From positions 1,410,712-1,474,711 of the forward strand of contig NZ_NIDE01000017.1 of the NCBI RefSeq assembly GCF_002197845.1: a stretch of 64,000 nt of DNA. Reading direction: 5' to 3'. Source of the stretch: Fimbriiglobus ruber (GTDB lineage Bacteria; Planctomycetota; Planctomycetia; Gemmatales; Gemmataceae). The position numbers and the translations under genes were made by a program. The notes under the pieces were generated by a model, which was given only the letters and a program-made list of their open reading frames with translations, ran no database searches and was not told where the DNA came from. This document shows, piece by piece, positions 1,303 to 23,990 of this stretch (position 1 is the first letter of the stretch; each line of letters starts with the position of its first letter).

Positions 1303-3120
1303 TTAATTCTCTTCCTTGGCCGGCACGATCATTTTGCGGCCGATGGCGACCGCTTCCGCCGGGACGAAGACGTTGAACCCGGCGGCACCGGGGTTGAGTA
1401 CGAGAGCCACGCCCGCGTAGACGGGGGCGGCGCCCTTCAGCGGCTTGATGTCCGGGACGTTCGCCCCGGGGAAGCCGGGCATCGCCGCCACGATCCCCTT
1501 GGCGAACGAGCCGAACGTCGCGATCGTTTGGCCCACCTCGGCCAGCACGACCTGCGAGGCGGCCGCCGGGAGCTGCTTGCGGGCCGCCTCGAACGCCGCC
1601 TCGCCCTTCACTTCGGACTTCCCGGCCGTGTATTCGTCGAGCAGTTTCTTCGCCGCTTCCCAGTCCTTCGCGACCACCTGGACGAACCGCTTGCCGTCGG
1701 TCCCGAACCAAAACGTCGTCTTCTCGTTGACGAACCGCTTCATCGACTCGATCGACGCTTTCTTGACGTTTTCATCCGCCACGGTGCCGACCGATGCTTC
1801 AAAATCGAGGATGATTTGCGCGCGGGCGAGGGTAAACCCGGCGTACTCCTCGGCCGCCTCCTTGACCACCGGCTTGTTCTTGATGACCACGTTTTGATAC
1901 CGCCCGCCCTCGGGCAGGGTCCGCAGCACCGACAGTTCCGCGGCCGCCAGTTTCTTGGCGTCCTTGGGGAAGAGGACGTTCAGACTGGCGTCCGTGCCGC
2001 TGCTCGTCCCGATCCACCCGCCGGCCATCGCCTCGGAGTAGAGGGTCGAATACTTAGCGATGGCGGCGATCGCCTTGTCCTCGTCGGCGCCCGCCGCGAA
2101 CTCCTTGCCCAGCCCGCGCATGACGGCGGCGAGGTCGGCCCCGAACCGCCCGGCGGTGTAAACGGCGTGCCCCTTGGGCAGCGTCCCCAGTTCGTCCAGC
2201 GCGGTCGGCTTCTCGTTCGCGAACAGCTTGCCGGTGTCGGTCCCGTTGGTGAACGCCATCTCGCCGCGGACGCGGAGGCCGTCGGCCTGGAAGGTGACGC
2301 CGAGCGCCAGCCCCTTGCCGTCCTCGACCGCCTGGAAGAGCCCGTCGTACACGAGCTTGATGGTGTCGAGCTGGCTCTTGTCGACGCCGGGGAACTGGCC
2401 GCCCCCGCCCATCTGGACGATGTTGTGGAACAGCTGGCGGAACTGGCGGATCTGTTCGCCGTACTTCTCGTTGATGGCGTCCAGGTTCACGTACACGCCC
2501 ACGTCCGACTGGAGGAACGCCTCGGCAACCGCCCCGCCGGCCTTGGCCAGGGTCAGCATGTCGTGGCTCTTCGCGTAGTGTTCGGCCGTATCTTCACTCA
2601 TCGTGGCGGCGACGTACCCGCTCTTGGTCAGGTCCACGAGGAACACGGTCTTGCCGTCGGCGTCGAACTGGTCGACCCCGTTCTTCCCCTTCTCGAACGA
2701 CTTCCGCTCGTCGGCGGAGAGCAGTTTCTCGCGGAACGCCTTGTAGTCGGCGGCCGGCAACAGGACGGCCCACTCGCCGTTCGCGCCGGTGAGGTTTTCG
2801 AACGAGTTCGCGGCCAGGTAAATGGGCGCGTCCGGGGTGAGGGCGGTCAGGTCGCGGCCGTCGGCGGCGTTCTTGAACGCCTCGTCGATCTTGGCCTTGA
2901 TCGGCCCGGCCAGGTCCGGGACGGCCGCCTCGATGAGTTTCGTGAGTCGGTCGCGGGCCGTGCCGACGCCGCTCACGCGGACGACCGCCAGCGCCTTGTT
3001 CGACACCGGAATGCCCGGTTTGGCGGCCGGGGCGGGGGCCGGCGCGGCGGGGGCGGGCGACCCGCCGGAGCACAACACGAGTGCGGCGGCCAACGGGGCC
3101 AACAGTGCGCGGACTGACAT
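1303..3120 (-). CDS. Secreted planctomycete protein of unknown function
   Basis: 605 residues from the ATG at 3120, chosen because a GGAG site lies about 9 bases upstream and because a signal peptide follows directly (MSVRALLAPLAAALVLCSGG, then an Ala/Pro linker to about residue 34). A longer frame reaches 3231 but adds no signal-like sequence. The mature part mixes helices and strands, is rich in Lys and Ala, and has no catalytic motif that I recognise. It resembles large exported planctomycete proteins with DUF3352-like architecture, but this is a guess. Probably monocistronic: it is followed by the truncated fragment on the same strand 65 bases downstream. Confidence 0.75.
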   Translation of the reverse strand: MSVRALLAPLAAALVLCSGGSPAPAAPAPAPAAKPGIPVSNKALAVVRVSGVGTARDRLTKLIEAAVPDLAGPIKAKIDEAFKNAADGRDLTALTPDAPIYLAANSFENLTGANGEWAVLLPAADYKAFREKLLSADERKSFEKGKNGVDQFDADGKTVFLVDLTKSGYVAATMSEDTAEHYAKSHDMLTLAKAGGAVAEAFLQSDVGVYVNLDAINEKYGEQIRQFRQLFHNIVQMGGGGQFPGVDKSQLDTIKLVYDGLFQAVEDGKGLALGVTFQADGLRVRGEMAFTNGTDTGKLFANEKPTALDELGTLPKGHAVYTAGRFGADLAAVMRGLGKEFAAGADEDKAIAAIAKYSTLYSEAMAGGWIGTSSGTDASLNVLFPKDAKKLAAAELSVLRTLPEGGRYQNVVIKNKPVVKEAAEEYAGFTLARAQIILDFEASVGTVADENVKKASIESMKRFVNEKTTFWFGTDGKRFVQVVAKDWEAAKKLLDEYTAGKSEVKGEAAFEAARKQLPAAASQVVLAEVGQTIATFGSFAKGIVAAMPGFPGANVPDIKPLKGAAPVYAGVALVLNPGAAGFNVFVPAEAVAIGRKMIVPAKEEN

Positions 3121-3370
3121 GGATGGCACTCCGACGATGGAAAAGCGACACGAATCTCGGTCCGGAGACATGATAAGCGCGAACGGCGCGAAGCCCAAGA
3201 CGGCGCGGTACACGTCTGCACGGGCGGACACCGGTGCCGCTGGGCGGTAGAATTCGTTCGGGAGCGGTCGGCGTCAAGCCGTGTGGCAACACACTCTCCG
3301 GGGTTACCCCGGGGGATTTCGTTACGTGCCGATTCCGTCGCGTGACAGCCGATCCACTATGTGGATAATT

Positions 3371-3422
3371 TGTCACGCCCTGGCTGAGTCAGGTTGACGC
3401 CGGCCGCTTCTCATTTTCAAGA
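3371..3422 (-). repeat. 52-bp repeat, distal copy: duplicated 3' end of the reverse transcriptase gene
   Basis: Matches 4271-4322 at an exact offset of 900 bases with three differences (3380, 3392 and 3416). Read on the minus strand it encodes LENEKRPAST followed by a stop, the same ten C-terminal residues as the reverse transcriptase, plus the sequence after the stop. Of the three differences, two are synonymous (GAG/GAA and ACG/ACC) and one lies after the stop. The copy has no gene body attached. It marks one border of the toxin-antitoxin cassette. Confidence 0.85.
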
Positions 3423-3442
3423 TGCCTAACTAGAAGGGCCAC

Positions 3443-3730
3443 ATGCCTCACCACCTAACCGTCCCCGACGAGATTTACCAACGCCTCGCTGACCGCGCTC
3501 GAATGGCCAGCCTGTCCGTCCCCGAGCTCCTCGCCCCCGTTCTCGACGCTCTCGCCCGTACTGGCTCCGCCCACCTTCCGCCGCAAGCCATCAACCACGA
3601 GGAGTGGCTCCGACGAGCGAACGAGTGGCAGCAACTCGTTGAGAACCGGGCCGACCGTTACCCCCCTGGATTTCGAGTGGACGACGACCGCGAATCCATC
3701 TACAAGGATCGAGAGGACGCCCAGCGGTGA
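3443..3730 (+). CDS. Antitoxin of a PIN-type toxin-antitoxin pair
   Basis: 95 residues, with an AGAAGGG ribosome-binding site just before the ATG. The N-terminus (MPHHLTVPDEIYQRLADRA) looks like the ribbon-helix-helix-like start of antitoxins that act on a PIN partner. The middle is helical, and the C-terminus is charged and probably disordered (DDDRESIYKDREDAQR), as expected for the toxin-neutralising tail. Its stop overlaps the toxin start by four bases (GTGA), the usual coupling in vapBC operons. Such antitoxins usually repress their own promoter. Assignment rests on context and general shape, not on a strong family motif. Confidence 0.7.
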   Translation: MPHHLTVPDEIYQRLADRARMASLSVPELLAPVLDALARTGSAHLPPQAINHEEWLRRANEWQQLVENRADRYPPGFRVDDDRESIYKDREDAQR

Positions 3731-4191
3731 CCACCCTCGTCGACACGAACATCCTCGTCCGTCTCTCCACCCCGACGGATCCCGATCGGTCCATTGCCTT
3801 GGCTGCCGCCACCATCTTGCAAGCCGGTGGTGATGACCTCCGCACATTCCCGCAGAGCCTGTATGAGTTTTGGGTGACCGCGACACGCCCGACGACCGCC
3901 AACGGCCTCGGCCTCACGTCCACGAGATGTGCCGCCGAACTCTCAAAACTCGAAGCGACGTTCCCGCCGCTTACTGACCCGGCCGATCTGTTCACCCGCT
4001 GGAAGGCGCTCGTCATCGCCTACCAGTGCGCCGGCAAAGTCGCCCACGACGCCCGGCTCGTGGCCGCTATGAACGCGCACGGCATCACCCGCATTCTGAC
4101 CTTTAACGGGCGGGACTTTGCCCGCTATCCCGGAATCACCATCCTCGATCCGAAGGTCGTCGCCGCAACCCCACCAAGTTCCACGCCATGA
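3727..4191 (+). CDS. vapC: PIN-domain ribonuclease toxin (VapC-like)
   Basis: 154 residues from a GTG that overlaps the antitoxin stop. The PIN fold signature is clear: LVDTNILVRL with the first catalytic Asp at residue 6, a conserved Glu in QSLYEFWV near residue 48, HDARLVAAM near residue 115 with a second acidic residue, and ILTFNGRDFARY near residue 130 with the last acidic cluster. PIN toxins cut RNA, often tRNA or rRNA, and are blocked by the adjacent antitoxin. The pair lies between two copies of the 3' end of a reverse transcriptase gene, which suggests it arrived as a small mobile unit. Confidence 0.85.
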   Translation: MTTLVDTNILVRLSTPTDPDRSIALAAATILQAGGDDLRTFPQSLYEFWVTATRPTTANGLGLTSTRCAAELSKLEATFPPLTDPADLFTRWKALVIAYQCAGKVAHDARLVAAMNAHGITRILTFNGRDFARYPGITILDPKVVAATPPSSTP

Positions 4192-4270
4192 CCGGTGAAC
4201 TGGTTGTTGTGAATCAAAACGAGCAGGTCGTCCGGCTCAACCCCCGCCAACTCCTCGACGCGATCGATTA

Positions 4271-4322
4271 TGTCACGCCTTGGCTGAGTCACGTTGACGC
4301 CGGCCGCTTCTCATTCTCAAGA
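4271..4322 (-). repeat. 52-bp repeat, proximal copy, containing the reverse transcriptase stop codon
   Basis: Contains the last ten codons and the stop (4289-4291) of the reverse transcriptase gene and about 18 bases beyond. It matches 3371-3422 with three mismatches. The two copies enclose the 848-bp toxin-antitoxin segment 3423-4270. Confidence 0.85.
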
Positions 4323-5635
4323 ACGGCCTCGAACTTCAATTTCAACTTCGCACCCCGGCGCGGGTTCGCCTGCGAAACGAAGGCGATCCGGCCGCGGAGG
4401 GAGTCGACGAAGTGCGGGTGCCCGGCCCGGTTCTGGGACGCGAGCCCGTGTTTCATCGCGTTGTGCAGGATCGCCTTCAACTCGTCGAAATCCGGCCGCG
4501 GGACGTTGAGCGTTTCGTTCAGAATCAACCCTGTGGCCAACTGCCGGGTACTCCGTGCCATCACCCGGGTTTTGCGGAAGGCCGGCTGAAACCCTTCTTC
4601 GAGGATCACGCGGTAGACGCACGCGATGAAGCTTCGCCGTTTCCGGGCGAAGACGGCGTCGCCAGAAAACAGCAGGTCGTCCGCGTAGCGCGTGTAGCGG
4701 GCGCCAAGCTTGGCGGCGAGTCCGCTCAGGCGGCGGTCCAGCCGAAACGTGCAGAGGTTCGCGACGGCCGGCGACGTCGGCGCACCTTGCGGCAGGTGTC
4801 GGCGGCGGTAGAGCGTCTGGAAGGTCAGCGAGACGTCGTCCGCTCCGGCCGGCGCCGTTGCCTCGACTGCCGCGGGCGTGATCGTGGTGCAGAGGCAGGT
4901 CAACAGCCAGGCCACCTCGTCGGGGTAGCCGAGCCAGCGGAACAAACTACCGACTCGTTTCCCAGCAACGGACGGGAAATAGTCCTTGAGATCGAACTTG
5001 ATGACGACGATCTGCCCGGTGTGTGGGGCCGCGTGGGTGAGGATCGACCGGCCGGCGCGGAAGCCGTGGGCGACGTCGTGCGGGGGGACGAGGTCAAGGA
5101 TGCGGTCGAGGATTTGCCGTTGAAGGCGTTTGAGGATTTCCTTCGGGGCCTCGATGAGTCGGTGGCCCCCGCGCCGGCGGGCGACCCAGTGGTAGCGGTA
5201 GTTTTGCACCGCGGGCGCTTGTCGCGCGTTCAAACACTTGATGTCCGCGAGCCAGCGGAGGACCGGCTCCGGGACGTTCAGCCAGTCGGCGAGTTGCGCG
5301 GGCGTGGCCAGCTTCGGCAGGTCCGGGTAGCGGAGGTGATCGACCTGATATTGCAAGGCTTCCCGCAGCAGGTCGGCCCGCGGCTGGGGCAACTTGTCCT
5401 TGTCGCGAAGGGCCGCCAGTCTGGGGTGGGCGGCCAGCAACCGAGCGAGGCGGGCCGCTGTCGGCGGGCGTGTGGGGAACCAAGCGACGAACTTCTCGAC
5501 CGCGGCCGCCCACCACTTCGGCTTCCGGCCCAGCAGCTTGTGGCCGCATGCCAACACAGCGGCTCGATCCCAAGGGTGGGCGAGCAGCACTCGGGCCATG
5601 TCCAGAAAGACCGGGTCGATCTTCACGACAGCCAC
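4289..5635 (-). CDS. Retron-like reverse transcriptase (RNA-directed DNA polymerase)
   Basis: 448 residues from a GTG. Residues 1-145 are a helical extension without known motifs. The polymerase fold follows: KEILKRLQRQIL, then HDVAHGFRAGRSILTHAAPH (compare the retron NAxxH element), motif A FDLKDYFPSV, motif B LPQGAPTSPAVANL, and motif C RYTRYADDLLFSGD with the YADD active site. After these comes ATGLILNETLNVPR, in the place of the retron VTG element that recognises the template RNA. No maturase or endonuclease domain follows, so a group II intron protein is unlikely. Retron RTs work with a structured RNA encoded just upstream; the 194 bases before this gene contain hairpins. The 3' end is duplicated at 3371-3422. 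Confidence 0.85.
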   Translation of the reverse strand: MAVVKIDPVFLDMARVLLAHPWDRAAVLACGHKLLGRKPKWWAAAVEKFVAWFPTRPPTAARLARLLAAHPRLAALRDKDKLPQPRADLLREALQYQVDHLRYPDLPKLATPAQLADWLNVPEPVLRWLADIKCLNARQAPAVQNYRYHWVARRRGGHRLIEAPKEILKRLQRQILDRILDLVPPHDVAHGFRAGRSILTHAAPHTGQIVVIKFDLKDYFPSVAGKRVGSLFRWLGYPDEVAWLLTCLCTTITPAAVEATAPAGADDVSLTFQTLYRRRHLPQGAPTSPAVANLCTFRLDRRLSGLAAKLGARYTRYADDLLFSGDAVFARKRRSFIACVYRVILEEGFQPAFRKTRVMARSTRQLATGLILNETLNVPRPDFDELKAILHNAMKHGLASQNRAGHPHFVDSLRGRIAFVSQANPRRGAKLKLKFEAVLENEKRPAST

Positions 5636-5829
5636 TCGCGGGCCGGGGAATGAACATACGGGGGAATGATAGCCGATCGGCTACTGGGTCATGAGCGACA
5701 GATCAGGTCATGAGGCGTCGAACCGGGGGTATTTTTTGCGCTTATTGCGCTGAAACCCCGGTTTTAGGGCCGGCCGGTTGCCGTCTGGTAGACTGTGCAA
5801 CAGTGCCGTCGGGATGGGTAACGTATCTG
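5636..5829 (-). other. Gap between kinase and reverse transcriptase genes; possible structured RNA or terminator
   Basis: This 194-base gap precedes the RT gene on its own strand. It holds a hairpin at about 5720-5764, with AACCGGGG facing CCCCGGTT and an inner GCGC/GCGC pair, and a perfect 12-base palindrome AGCCGATCGGCT at 5671-5682. It also has a repeated CTCATGACC about 20 bases apart. A retron msr-msd RNA would be expected here, but I cannot identify its end repeats or branching G. The first hairpin could simply terminate the kinase transcript, although no T-run follows it. Confidence 0.35.
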
Positions 5830-8800
5830 CTACCGAACGCCTTTCGGCGGCTCGGGGGTGATCTGACAGTTTGGCAGGACGGTCTTCAGCGTTCTCAGCC
5901 CGGCCGCGGAAATCTTGGTGTCGTCCAGTTCGAGTTTGGTCAGGTTGATCAGTTTCGAGAGATGGGGGACGGCCGCGTCGGTCAGGCCGGTTCTCATGAG
6001 GTTGAGTATCCGGAGAGCTGGGAGTTTGGCCACTGCCACAAGATGGTCGTTTCCGACAAGGGTGTATTCGAGGGCCAATGCTTCCAGGCGCGGTAGATCG
6101 GCAAGATGGGCCAGCCCCTTTCCCGTGATGGCCGCCCGGCTAATAGCCAACGCGCGGAGGCTTTTCAGCGGCTTTAGGGCGGCCAGGTGATCATCTCCGA
6201 GTTCGGCGTTTCCCAGATTGAGGCTTTTGATCGTCTTGCTCTGCGCGACCGATTCGACTTCGGCAACAGTCCGAAGACCACAATCCCCGAGGTTGAGGTC
6301 TTCGATCGGTAATTGGGCAAGAATGGCGACCACACCGGGCCGGCATTCACGCCCGCACGGCTTGAAGTATCGTAAACGAGGCAGTTTACGGAGTTGAGCA
6401 GCGGCTTCGGGGGTAATAGCCGTGCCCCAAAAGATCTCGATCCCTTCCAGATGGGGGAACGCCGGGAAGGTGGCAAACCCGGCTGCGGTAATTGCGGTGC
6501 CGTTCAGACCGAGGTATCTCAGCCCGGCGAACCCGGGAAAGGTGCCGATCTTCGCCCAGCCGGCGTCTGTCAGAGAGGGACTGTTTAACACCAGATCTTT
6601 GACTCCGGAACAATCCCGGAGTATGTCCAGGTCTTGTGTGGCGAACTTCGCGTCATTAGTCAGGACAATATCAGTGATTATGAACGGTTTGTCTGGAAAC
6701 TCTTCCGGTTTCCGCGCTTCCCCTCTGTTGCCGGTTGCGACCTGATACCGGACCCATCCGTTGTGCGCCAGAACCCATTCGGCCGCCCGCCGCTCGGCCG
6801 CCTGGTCGAATTCAAGTAAGGACAGCGCAGACTTCGGGACGATCTCGCACTTTGGTAGGGTCTGCCGCAACTGCCGCAACCCGGCGGGAGTGACCTTCGT
6901 CTCGTTCAGATCCAGAAACTCAAGTCGGGTCAGTTTGCTTAGCGCCGGTACGGCTTCGTCCGTCACTCCGGAATTCGAAAGGCCCAGCCGTCGGAGGGCC
7001 GCTAATCCGGCCAATTCTTTCAGCGCGGCCGGAGTGACGGTCGGCCCGTGCCATTCGAGAGAGGTAAGGGTTTTGCTGCCGGCCAGCATTCGTATCGCTT
7101 CGGACGTTACCGCACGCCCACGAATGCGCACCGACTCGAGATGGGGCAACCGGGCGATAACGCCGAACCCGTCCGGCGCCAGATCTTCGCAGTCGAGCAA
7201 GTTCAAGGCTCGCAGGCGGGGCAAGGTTTTGAGGGATGCCATCTCGGTCCCGGTAAACCGGGTACCGCGGAGGCTCAAGCTCTCCAGCCGGGTTAGCCCT
7301 CTTAGCTTTGCCAGACCGCGGTCCCCGACTTTAGTCTCTTCTAGTGTCAGGGTCCTGAGGTTCATCAGCCCTGCCAAATGTTCCATCCCCTCGTCGCCGA
7401 CTTGCGTCGCATCGAGTTTCAAAGTCTCGAGTTCGGTCAGCCCGCGAAGTGACTTCAGGCCGGTGTCAGAGACAGAGGAGAATGTGAGGGTTAGGTGCTT
7501 GAGTTTCGTCAACCGGGCCAACGCCGCCAACCCGTCCGGATCACCCCGGTACATTTCGAACGAGAGGGTCTCGAGATCGGCCATGCGCCCGATGGCCCGG
7601 AGCCCGTCCGCCGACACGGACGTGCTCCGCACCGCCAGGGTTCGAATCGACGGGTTGGCGGCCAGGGCGATCATGCCGGCGGCCGTCACCGGCCCGCAGG
7701 ACTGGACGACCACGGATTCCAACCCGGGGTTCGCCGCCACTGTCCGAACGCCCGCGTCCGCAACGTTCAGGCAGTCGGCGAAAATCACGCACCGGAGCTT
7801 ACTCAGACCCGCGAGCCGCGCGACGACGGCCTCGTCCGTGACCTTCGAGCACCCGTGGAACGTGACGGATCGCACCTGAAACTCGGGTGGTAGGTCGCTC
7901 GCTTTACCGATCGACAAATCGGCGTTCGACCCGGGGAGGGAGACGGCGAGCCCCGCCCACTCGCCGGGCCGCGCGACCGAAAGGACCCATTCGGCCGCCC
8001 GCCGCTCGGCCGCCTGATCGAACGGGTGGGGACTGGGAGGTGGCACACGACCGCCCCCGAGTTCTGGTGGGGGCGGTAGGATTTGACAACCCGGCAAAGC
8101 CTTATTTAACGCCAGCAACCCGGCTGGCGTAATCCGTGTGTCCACGACCTTAAGGAACGTGAGCCCGTCGAGAGCGGCAAGCAAGGGAACTGCGGCGTCC
8201 GTAATCTCAGTTTTGCTGAGGTCTAGGGTTTTTAACGTCTTGAGAGTCGCGATTTGCTTGACCCCTTCATCAGTCACACGATTCCGGTCGAGTCGCAACG
8301 ACGTCAAGGCTGGCAGTCTCGCGATGTGCGGACAAATCGCGTCTCCGATGGTGGTCTCAGCGAGTTCTAAGTTCGCTAAACCGGGTGCCGCCGCCAACCC
8401 ACTGAGGGCATGAGTCGGATAAACGGACTCGTAAATGTGAACGGCTTTGATGGTTGGGGATCTGCCGAGGGCGGCTAACCCGTCCCGCGTCCACCGGGCC
8501 GATATCTCGATCGGTATGTGTCCGAGGATCACTTTTTCCAAAAGAGGGGCGGACGCCAAGTGCCCGAACCAAGGGTCCACCACAGCGGCTTTCGTGAGCC
8601 AAAGGCACCTCAACTCAGGCAACCGGCACAGGTCCATGAGCCCTACGACAGTCATGGTCTTTGGTGTCAAGACAAGCGTGGTGAGCCGGTTGAGTCGAGT
8701 TAGATGGCGAACCCCTTCATCACCCATCTCAGTGCACGTTTCCAAGAGCTTGAGGTGAGTCAGTGGTAATCCGACAAGTGAGGGTAAAAATCGCAAGGAC

Positions 8801-22858: not shown

Positions 22859-23359
22859 CTATTGCGCGTTTTCCGATAGCCCGGAAGATGGGTCGGTGGT
22901 CCGAAGGATTCGCAACAAGTCGGGCGGGGTCAGGATGGTCAGGTCTGGGGCTTGCGCCTTGAGAGCTTCGCCGGCCGCGTTCTCGTCCTGCGACAAGTCG
23001 AGTAGGTCTTTGTCCCATGTCACCAGATACCTCGCCTCACTGGCAAGTGCGAGGTTCACGAGCGGTTCGTCTTTCGGATCCCGGTCGTACCGGAACCGGA
23101 CCGGCACGTCGGTCACGAGCGTCGATTGGGCTCGAACCGACTCCAGGAAGGTACGGGCGATTTCGGGGGCGATGCGGAGTTTCTTCACCAGTTTCGGTCG
23201 CGACACCACATCGGCCAATTCCGCGAGCGTGTCTCCGCTGGTATAGTGTACCAGTTCGCCGGCCCGGACCCGCTCCCAACAAGCGGCGGCGGGGCCAGCC
23301 GGGTTGGCAAGTGCCTGAACGAAAGTGACGGCATCGAACACGGCGCCCGGCGGTGTCAT
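22859..23359 (-). CDS. PIN-domain toxin, 'putative toxin component' type
   Basis: 166 residues. PIN signature: AVFDAVTFVQALANP near the start (Asp 9 in the active site), TLAELADVVSRPKLVKKL around residues 45-60, and DRDPKDEPLVNLALASEARYLVTWDKDLLDL with the distal acidic residues. The ATG overlaps the antitoxin stop by four bases (ATGA), so the two are translationally coupled. Predicted RNase, held inactive by its partner. A second PIN toxin of a different subfamily is at 3727-4191. Confidence 0.87.
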   Translation of the reverse strand: MTPPGAVFDAVTFVQALANPAGPAAACWERVRAGELVHYTSGDTLAELADVVSRPKLVKKLRIAPEIARTFLESVRAQSTLVTDVPVRFRYDRDPKDEPLVNLALASEARYLVTWDKDLLDLSQDENAAGEALKAQAPDLTILTPPDLLRILRTTDPSSGLSENAQ

Positions 23360-23634
23360 GCCGGCTTACGCGATTGTTTCTCTTGCCACACTTCCTCGCG
23401 GGCTTCTTGCACGAGGTCGGTGATGTCGTCGTCGGTCATCTCGGAGTCCTGGAAAGCCGCCCGGACCGGCGCGACGACCTCCTCGAAGGTCGCTTTGGGG
23501 GGCAGAGGCTCGTTCGCGGCGTCCAATTCAGCCAGGCGTACTAGGTAGATCTCCAGAGGGAGTCCGGCGGATCCGGCCTTCGCGCGGAGCTTCTTTTCCG
23601 TGTCGGGAGGGAGGGTGAGGATGACGTTCGACAT
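23356..23634 (-). CDS. Antitoxin partner of the PIN toxin
   Basis: 92 residues, starting MSNVILTLPPDTEKKLRAKAG, which looks like a short beta strand plus helices of the ribbon-helix-helix kind, then an acidic/helical tail (DSEMTDDDITDLVQEAREEV) suited to wrapping the toxin. Its first five codons and ~45 bases of upstream DNA are duplicated 248 bases upstream, on the far side of a long inverted repeat, so its promoter region has been rearranged. Confidence 0.8.
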   Translation of the reverse strand: MSNVILTLPPDTEKKLRAKAGSAGLPLEIYLVRLAELDAANEPLPPKATFEEVVAPVRAAFQDSEMTDDDITDLVQEAREEVWQEKQSRKPA

Positions 23635-23678
23635 CGGTATTCTCGGTCTGGGAGGCTATAGATCAAAAGATCTCATGC
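23619..23678. repeat. 60-bp direct repeat, copy next to the antitoxin
   Basis: Identical to 23867-23926 apart from one base (GGG/GGA). It covers the antitoxin start codon, its first codons and the 5' untranslated region, and contains a short palindrome AGATC...GATCT-like (TCAAAAGATCTCAT). Confidence 0.9.
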
Positions 23679-23708
23679 CAAGAATGCTGCGGAATCAGTT
23701 CCGCACCG

Positions 23709-23866
23709 GCGCTCGGCGCGGGTCTCCGACCCCGCCGTTCGGCCCGACCGCAGGTCTCCTGTCCCACGGCGCGTGCCCATCCGGTCGGTGTCTTGTGCGG
23801 CGAGCGGCGGAAGAGGGAGACCTGCGGTCGGGCCGAACGGCGGGGTCGGAGACCCGCGCCGAGCGC
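23709..23866. mobile_element. MITE-like hairpin element with 51-bp perfect inverted repeats
   Basis: Arms 23709-23759 and 23816-23866 are perfect complements over 51 bases and enclose a 56-base centre. The whole is bracketed by the 60-bp direct repeats. It has no coding capacity of its own. The symmetry suggests a non-autonomous mobile element or a very strong cruciform/terminator. It separates the antitoxin gene from its ancestral upstream region. Confidence 0.75.
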
Positions 23867-23926
23867 GGATGACGTTCGACATCGGTATTCTCGGTCTGGA
23901 AGGCTATAGATCAAAAGATCTCATGC
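23867..23926. repeat. 60-bp direct repeat, distal copy
   Basis: Second copy of 23619-23678. On the minus strand it carries a vestigial antitoxin start (MSNVI), whose frame then runs into the inverted repeat and encodes nothing recognisable. Similarity continues weakly for ~15 bases beyond the repeat. Confidence 0.9.
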
Positions 23927-23990
23927 GAGGACTGCTCCAAAAACACTCCGCAGCATTCTATTCTGTGGATGAGCCTGCACACCCATTTTG

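What the first reader, a model, noticed from the sequence alone, without database searches (positions are those of the whole stretch)
3371..4322. Toxin-antitoxin cassette inserted at, and duplicating, the 3' end of a reverse transcriptase gene
A PIN toxin/antitoxin pair lies between two 52-bp copies (exact offset 900, three mismatches) of the last ten codons, stop and trailing bases of the RT gene. Both differences inside the coding part are synonymous. This is what happens when a mobile unit integrates into a gene's 3' end and restores it, as integrative elements do with tRNA genes. Either the TA pair is a minimal integrating unit, or a second RT gene once stood here and all but its tail was lost.
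Basis: partly seen in the sequence, partly recalled or inferred. Interest (0 to 1): 0.7.

Follow-up and report, generated by a model that had tools for sequence, protein, structure and literature searches.

The report
Toxin-antitoxin insertion duplicating a gene end
A small toxin-antitoxin gene pair sits in the tail end of a reverse transcriptase gene with that tail copied on both sides, and the same layout recurs around unrelated toxin-antitoxin pairs in related bacteria, which suggests that such pairs can enter chromosomes without a transposase or integrase of their own.

Summary
The repeat is real: 52 bp at 3371-3422 and 4271-4322, offset 900, three mismatches, the only two places in the 12.36-Mb genome. 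Copy B holds the last ten codons, stop and 18 further bases of a retron-like RT gene.
The layout is not peculiar to RT. Of PIN-toxin loci in the family, 8 of 62 have direct repeats tightly round the pair, against 7 of 1200 random positions; of RelE/ParE loci, 9 of 90 against 8 of 1000. I trust 14 of these 17. In 11 of the 14 the repeat is a gene's end, 3' (7) or 5' (4), one copy joined to the gene body. Inserts are 497-1087 bp, without terminal inverted repeats.
This resembles 'insertion with long target duplication', described for restriction-modification systems. Site-specific integration at RT genes and a lost second RT gene are not supported. How the duplication forms is open; Ku end joining is unlikely.

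The parts
3340..3378 (.). 39-nt nested palindrome (8-bp and 6-bp arms) whose right arm is the start of copy A; perhaps native sequence downstream of the RT gene (inference)
   Evidence: perfect arms; pattern not found in 100 shuffles of the window
3371..3422 (.). copy A of the 52-bp repeat (orphan copy of the RT gene end)
3423..4270 (+). 848-bp insert between the copies
3443..3730 (+). antitoxin gene, 95 aa
   Evidence: homologues precede the PIN gene in related loci, e.g. 52% over 84 aa in L024
3727..4191 (+). PIN-domain toxin gene (VapC-like), 154 aa
4188..4265 (+). first 26 codons of a tyrosine recombinase gene, start overlapping the toxin stop (ATGA); truncated
   Evidence: 17 of 26 residues identical to the intact recombinase at G000:C12:27224; 56.5% over 23 aa to L082/L026
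4271..4322 (.). copy B of the 52-bp repeat; last ten codons, stop and 18 following bases of the RT gene
4289..5635 (-). retron-like reverse transcriptase gene, 448 aa, with copy B as its tail

Best explanation
A DNA piece of about 850 bp with a complete toxin-antitoxin pair entered the 3' end of the RT gene so that the last 52 bp of that gene region now stand on both sides of it. The copy joined to the RT body (B) keeps the reading frame; the other (A) is an orphan. Shown: the anatomy, the recombinase fragment, and recurrence of the layout round other TA pairs far above controls. Inferred: that it was an insertion, that the pair is kept because it is addictive, and that insertions survive at gene ends because the duplication leaves one usable gene end. 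The molecular step is inferred too: most likely a host recombination or replication error that joins an incoming TA fragment next to a gene end, either duplicating the target or bringing a donor's copy of that gene end along. A transposase, this integrase, and Ku-dependent end joining are all unlikely. The piece was probably cut out of a TA-recombinase operon, because its right end lies inside the recombinase gene.
For: PIN loci with tight flanking repeats at E<=1e-6: 8 of 62 against 7 of 1200 random positions, one of the 7 being this repeat; RelE/ParE loci 9 of 90 against 8 of 1000; single-gene control 1 of 159, and that one is a palindromic REP-like repeat. Of the 17 I keep 14. In 11 the repeat is a gene end with one copy joined to the gene body: RT, L162, L163, L171, L202, L211, L218 (3'); L145, L148, L166, L233 (5'). 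Inserts are little more than the pair: 802-878 bp for six PIN cases, 1087 for L162, 497-773 for RelE/ParE. A 411-bp DNA alignment (69%) to L082 runs from the toxin gene into the recombinase start. Review PMC3874152 says that some restriction-modification systems insert with long, variable target duplications of the order of 100 bp (passages).
Against: No relative with the empty site was found, so insertion is inferred from structure. Most TA loci (54 of 62 PIN; 81 of 90 RelE/ParE) have no such repeat. All 17 other members of the RT's clade carry a W one codon inside the repeat where this RT has E, so the tail may not be native. In L148 the body copy has a 2-bp gap that breaks the gene's frame, so a usable gene end was not kept there, in this assembly; several other target genes run off the stretch read (L171, L211, L218). 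Three of the 14 repeats (L165, L181, L196) could not be assigned to a gene end. The 70-bp repeat at 23.6-23.9 kb flanks a palindromic insert, not a TA pair, so the process need not be specific to TA pairs.
Confidence: 0.7

Rival explanations
1. Site-specific integration: the 52-bp copies are attL and attR of an element with a tyrosine recombinase that targets the RT 3' end, later reduced to the TA pair and 26 codons of the recombinase.
For: Recombinase N-terminus beside copy B; direct repeats that restore the gene end look like att sites.
Against: The recombinase family has a dif-like site upstream in 11 of 13 loci examined, the two misses (L091, L092) matching only the C-terminal half of the protein; the window has no such site. 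Round 10 recombinase loci tested the longest listed direct repeat is 16 bp. Ten other repeat-flanked TA pairs lie at ends of other genes, both ends used, and three more at unassigned places. Reduction to just a TA pair would have to recur.
Confidence: 0.12
2. Templated filler: the TA-recombinase operon and the RT gene were neighbours; a deletion fused recombinase codon 28 to RT codon 438, and the gap was filled with 52 bp copied from in front of the TA pair. The RT tail is then foreign.
For: RT homology ends at the repeat border; a W present in 17 of 17 other clade members is lost there; both genes are cut at copy B.
Against: Needs a special history for one locus while the same layout recurs at other TA pairs. 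All three differences fall on third positions of the RT frame, as expected if both copies once were RT tails, though three sites are few. Rests on one alignment column in a long-branch RT.
Confidence: 0.12
3. A second RT gene once lay here and all but its tail was replaced by the TA pair.
For: Synonymous differences between the copies.
Against: The RT protein has no match in the insert (best E 0.81). In the list of RT matches of 95 genomes (E<=1e-40) I see no two on one contig closer than about 20 kb. Synonymous excess is seen at other targets too.
Confidence: 0.03
4. The repeat is a dispersed repetitive element or chance.
For: Other repeats exist nearby and in related loci.
Against: Only two copies in 12.36 Mb with up to 3 mismatches; E 4e-17 between the flanks.
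Confidence: 0.02

Closest known systems
Insertion with long target duplication of restriction-modification systems (Nobusato et al. 2000; Furuta et al. 2010; neither read here, known through passages of PMC3874152 and PMC3031569)
   Same: Addictive gene unit bounded by long direct repeats of variable length, of the order of 100 bp, without a transposase
   Different: Here the unit is a type II toxin-antitoxin pair of 0.5-1.1 kb in Gemmataceae; the repeats are mostly gene ends; differences between copies are enriched in synonymous changes. Whether the restriction-modification cases share the last two features was not checked
Integrative elements that enter the 3' end of a gene and restore it (tRNA genes; e14 in icd is recalled, not looked up)
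   Same: Gene end duplicated, coding sequence restored
   Different: No whole integrase in the unit, different targets, 5' ends also used
VapBC-type chromosomal toxin-antitoxin loci
   Same: Two-gene order, overlapping start and stop, PIN toxin
   Different: Antitoxin matched no Pfam family here

Membership tests
Insertion with long target duplication | Long direct repeats of variable length directly flank the unit | tested here: met
   52 bp here; 50-216 bp in 13 other TA loci
Insertion with long target duplication | Related genome with one copy and no insert at the same place | tested here: inconclusive
   58 relatives searched by DNA and two same-genus genomes for the flanking gene: no orthologous site was found
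Insertion with long target duplication | Unit is an addictive gene complex | not testable with these tools
   PIN domain and paired small gene are present; addiction was not assayed
Tyrosine-recombinase integrative element | Complete integrase gene within the repeats | tested here: not met
   26 codons only; no further convincing match in the 64-kb window
Tyrosine-recombinase integrative element | Recombination site of that integrase family at the border | tested here: not met
   dif-like site absent from the window
DNA transposon / IS | Terminal inverted repeats and transposase | tested here: not met
   No significant inverted match between the outer 40 nt of any of 14 inserts (lowest P 0.146); the insert's ORFs are the TA pair and the recombinase fragment
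VapBC toxin-antitoxin | PIN toxin preceded by a small antitoxin gene, co-oriented | tested here: met
VapBC toxin-antitoxin | RNase activity neutralised by the partner | not testable with these tools
   no assay
Retron | RT of a retron clade | tested here: inconclusive
   Best PADLOC models are RT_other and RT_outgroup; NCBIfam retron_St85_RT below its cut-off
Retron | msr-msd non-coding RNA | tested here: inconclusive
   Rfam scan of 2500-6500 gave no match near a gathering score; no model for this clade was built

The most novel reading that the evidence does not exclude
TA pairs are minimal mobile units that travel with a short copy of a donor's gene end as homology arm: the circle or fragment recombines with the same gene end in a new cell, leaving the pair between a donor and a recipient copy, and can leave again by recombination between the copies. 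This would explain why differences between copies are enriched in synonymous changes (39 of 74 differing sites in 10 coding pairs; 26% expected if neutral; P 0.03 against one free and one fully constrained copy) and why L233 has separate start codons on both sides. Three of the ten pairs (L145, L163, L171) have more nonsynonymous than synonymous sites.
Probability: 0.3. Interest if true: 0.85.

Novelty: new variant of a known kind. Interest (0 to 1): 0.6.

Why it matters
Chromosomal toxin-antitoxin pairs are scattered and are thought to move between bacteria, yet many lie in no recognised mobile element. If about a tenth of the pairs in this bacterial family (14 of 152 tested) still show duplicated flanking sequence, mostly gene ends, there is a direct signature of how they enter chromosomes, and a test of whether addictive gene pairs are mobile elements in their own right, as was proposed for restriction-modification systems. 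It also suggests why such insertions lie at gene ends: the duplication can leave one intact gene.

Tried and rejected
Looked for the 52-bp sequence or its + frame peptide elsewhere: no peptide match (E<=0.05) in the other 94 family genomes, no exact match of a 30-base core in viral contigs, two short unrelated plasmid matches. Tested whether 4188-4322 is one recombinase N-terminus: homology stops at codon 26. Looked for direct repeats round 10 recombinase loci: longest listed 16 bp. Looked for an empty site through the gene left of copy A: the homologue in G001 has no RT beside it. Searched for Ku: 4 of 95 genomes, not G000 and none of the genomes that carry the 14 trusted cases; some of these genomes are incomplete (e.g. 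69% and 74%), so absence is not firm. Looked for RT sequence in the insert: none.

Rows set aside: L164 (71%, REP-like by eye), L243 (looks like a tandem duplication of a TA pair) and L249 (insert 1343, distant) out of the 17 hits; L045 and L046 (inserts 1367 and 2181, outside the tight geometry). Other hits of the wide test (L095, L129, L131, L132, L138, L142, L153, L154) are distant and of low identity and were not followed. The 66 matches are 64 loci; L155 was too short, L041 and L155. The 90 RelE/ParE loci are the 30 returned plus 60 taken down its list, which was itself cut. The tree left out duplicate loci and two partial RTs (L006, L065). The ten pairs of the synonymous test were put in frame by hand; L162 has no difference within its 27 identical coding bases and was not among them. 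This test is only suggestive.

Full report
1. The observation. The 52-bp repeat is at 3371-3422 and 4271-4322, offset 900, 49 of 52 identical. The whole genome (12,363,577 bases, 20 contigs) has no third place with up to three mismatches. Copy B covers the last ten codons, the stop and 18 following bases of a 448-aa reverse transcriptase gene on the minus strand. In that frame copy A encodes the same peptide, and the two differences inside codons are synonymous.

2. What lies between. An antitoxin gene (3443-3730) and a PIN toxin gene (3727-4191) are followed, with an ATGA overlap at 4188, by an ORF whose first 26 residues match a tyrosine recombinase: 17 of 26 identical to an intact copy elsewhere in this genome (C12) and 56.5% over 23 residues to the recombinase that follows a PIN pair in L026/L082. 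In DNA the match to L082 runs from the toxin gene into the recombinase start. The match ends just before copy B. The insert therefore probably came from a TA-recombinase operon, its right end being a break inside the recombinase gene. The RT protein has no match in the insert.

3. The recombinase as mover? Eleven of 13 loci of this recombinase family carry one conserved dif-like site upstream, with variable cargo between site and gene; the two misses match only the C-terminal half of the protein. This genome has that site once, at the intact copy, and the window has none. Ten recombinase loci tested show no direct flanking repeat over 16 bp in the listing. So the fragment is more likely cargo than evidence that this recombinase placed the pair.

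4. The general pattern. I tested PIN-toxin loci from 95 family genomes (more sequence) for direct repeats that tightly bracket the pair. Eight of 62 have one at E<=1e-6, against 7 of 1200 random positions with the same geometry; an earlier run with other settings gave 8 of 63 against 6 of 1500. RelE/ParE loci, another toxin family, gave 9 of 90 against 8 of 1000. Each of these three controls contains this very repeat once. Of 159 single genes tested in a similar way, one had a repeat, and it is a palindromic REP-like sequence. I distrust L164, L243 and L249, which leaves 14 cases (7 PIN, 7 RelE/ParE). Fisher tests for several such subsets are (P from 1e-7 to 3e-4).

5. What the repeats are. 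In 11 of the 14 the repeat is the end of a gene, and one copy is joined to the gene body. 3' ends: RT (window), L162, L163, L171 (altronate dehydratase type), L202 (Fe-S protein), L211 (FGGY kinase), L218 (phosphoglucomutase type). 5' ends: L145, L148, L166 (DUF1501), L233 (radical SAM). L165, L181 and L196 stay unassigned. In L148 the body copy has a 2-bp gap that breaks the frame; L171, L211 and L218 run off the stretch read. Repeat lengths are 50-216 bp, identities about 80-97%. The inserts are 802-878 bp for six PIN pairs, 1087 for L162 and 497-773 for RelE/ParE pairs: little more than the gene pair. None of the 14 has significant terminal inverted repeats.

6. How it may work. Shown: structure and recurrence. 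Inferred: a piece of DNA with a TA pair joined into a gene end so that the end is present twice; survivors lie at gene ends because one copy can keep the gene intact; the pair persists because it is addictive. Ku, needed for classical bacterial end joining, is found in 4 of 95 genomes and in none that carries the cases (some genomes are incomplete). Differences between copies are enriched in synonymous changes: 39 of 74 sites over ten coding pairs, where 26% is expected without constraint (P 9e-7) and 41% if one copy is free and the other fully constrained (P 0.03); L145, L163 and L171 on their own go the other way. This hints that both copies evolved as functional gene ends, that is, that the gene end may have come along with the TA pair from another genome. 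L233 points the same way, with different start codons on the two sides, but a start codon gained after insertion cannot be excluded.

7. Against. All 17 other members of the RT's clade (support 100/96) have a W at column 440, where this RT has E, one codon inside the repeat, while conserved positions just outside the repeat are kept, as judged by eye. It rests on one column in a long branch. No empty site was found. Most TA loci lack such repeats. A 70-bp repeat elsewhere in this window brackets a palindromic stretch instead of a TA pair.

8. Known context. Passages of PMC3874152 state that some restriction-modification systems insert with long and variable target duplications of the order of 100 bp; passages of PMC3031569 say the same of genome comparisons; of the primary papers one was not held and the other was not sought. 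PMC2654758 (passages) only says that restriction-modification systems share addiction and apparent mobility with TA systems. My searches listed no paper whose title or abstract start reports this for toxin-antitoxin pairs; several lists were cut (15 of 46, 12 of 66, 15 of 86) and only three papers were opened, for passages, so this is weak evidence of absence.

Noticed in passing
window 22859-23936: Second TA pair (PIN_3 toxin 22859-23359, small gene 23356-23634, minus strand). Its start region is repeated (70 bp, 94%, 23619-23688 and 23867-23936) around a strongly palindromic stretch of about 178 bp: a long duplication round a non-TA insert.
   Followed up: partly
L082-L094: Xer-like tyrosine recombinase family with one dif-like site upstream and exchangeable cargo (TA pairs, small ORFs) between site and gene; single site per locus, no paired att site found. 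L083 and L086 lie near genes that look like arsenic genes to the eye.
   Followed up: partly
window 5722-5846: Stretch upstream of the RT gene with similar copies at several places in this genome (C14, C9, C3; up to 90% identity).
   Followed up: no
window 3340-3378: 39-nt nested palindrome with 4x4 internal loop at the left edge of copy A; function unknown.
   Followed up: partly
L046 and L045: Longer repeat-bounded inserts round PIN pairs: 69 bp 94% with insert 2181, 32 bp 91% with insert 1367.
   Followed up: no
L243: RelE/ParE locus with a 315-bp repeat that looks like a tandem duplication within the TA locus.
   Followed up: no
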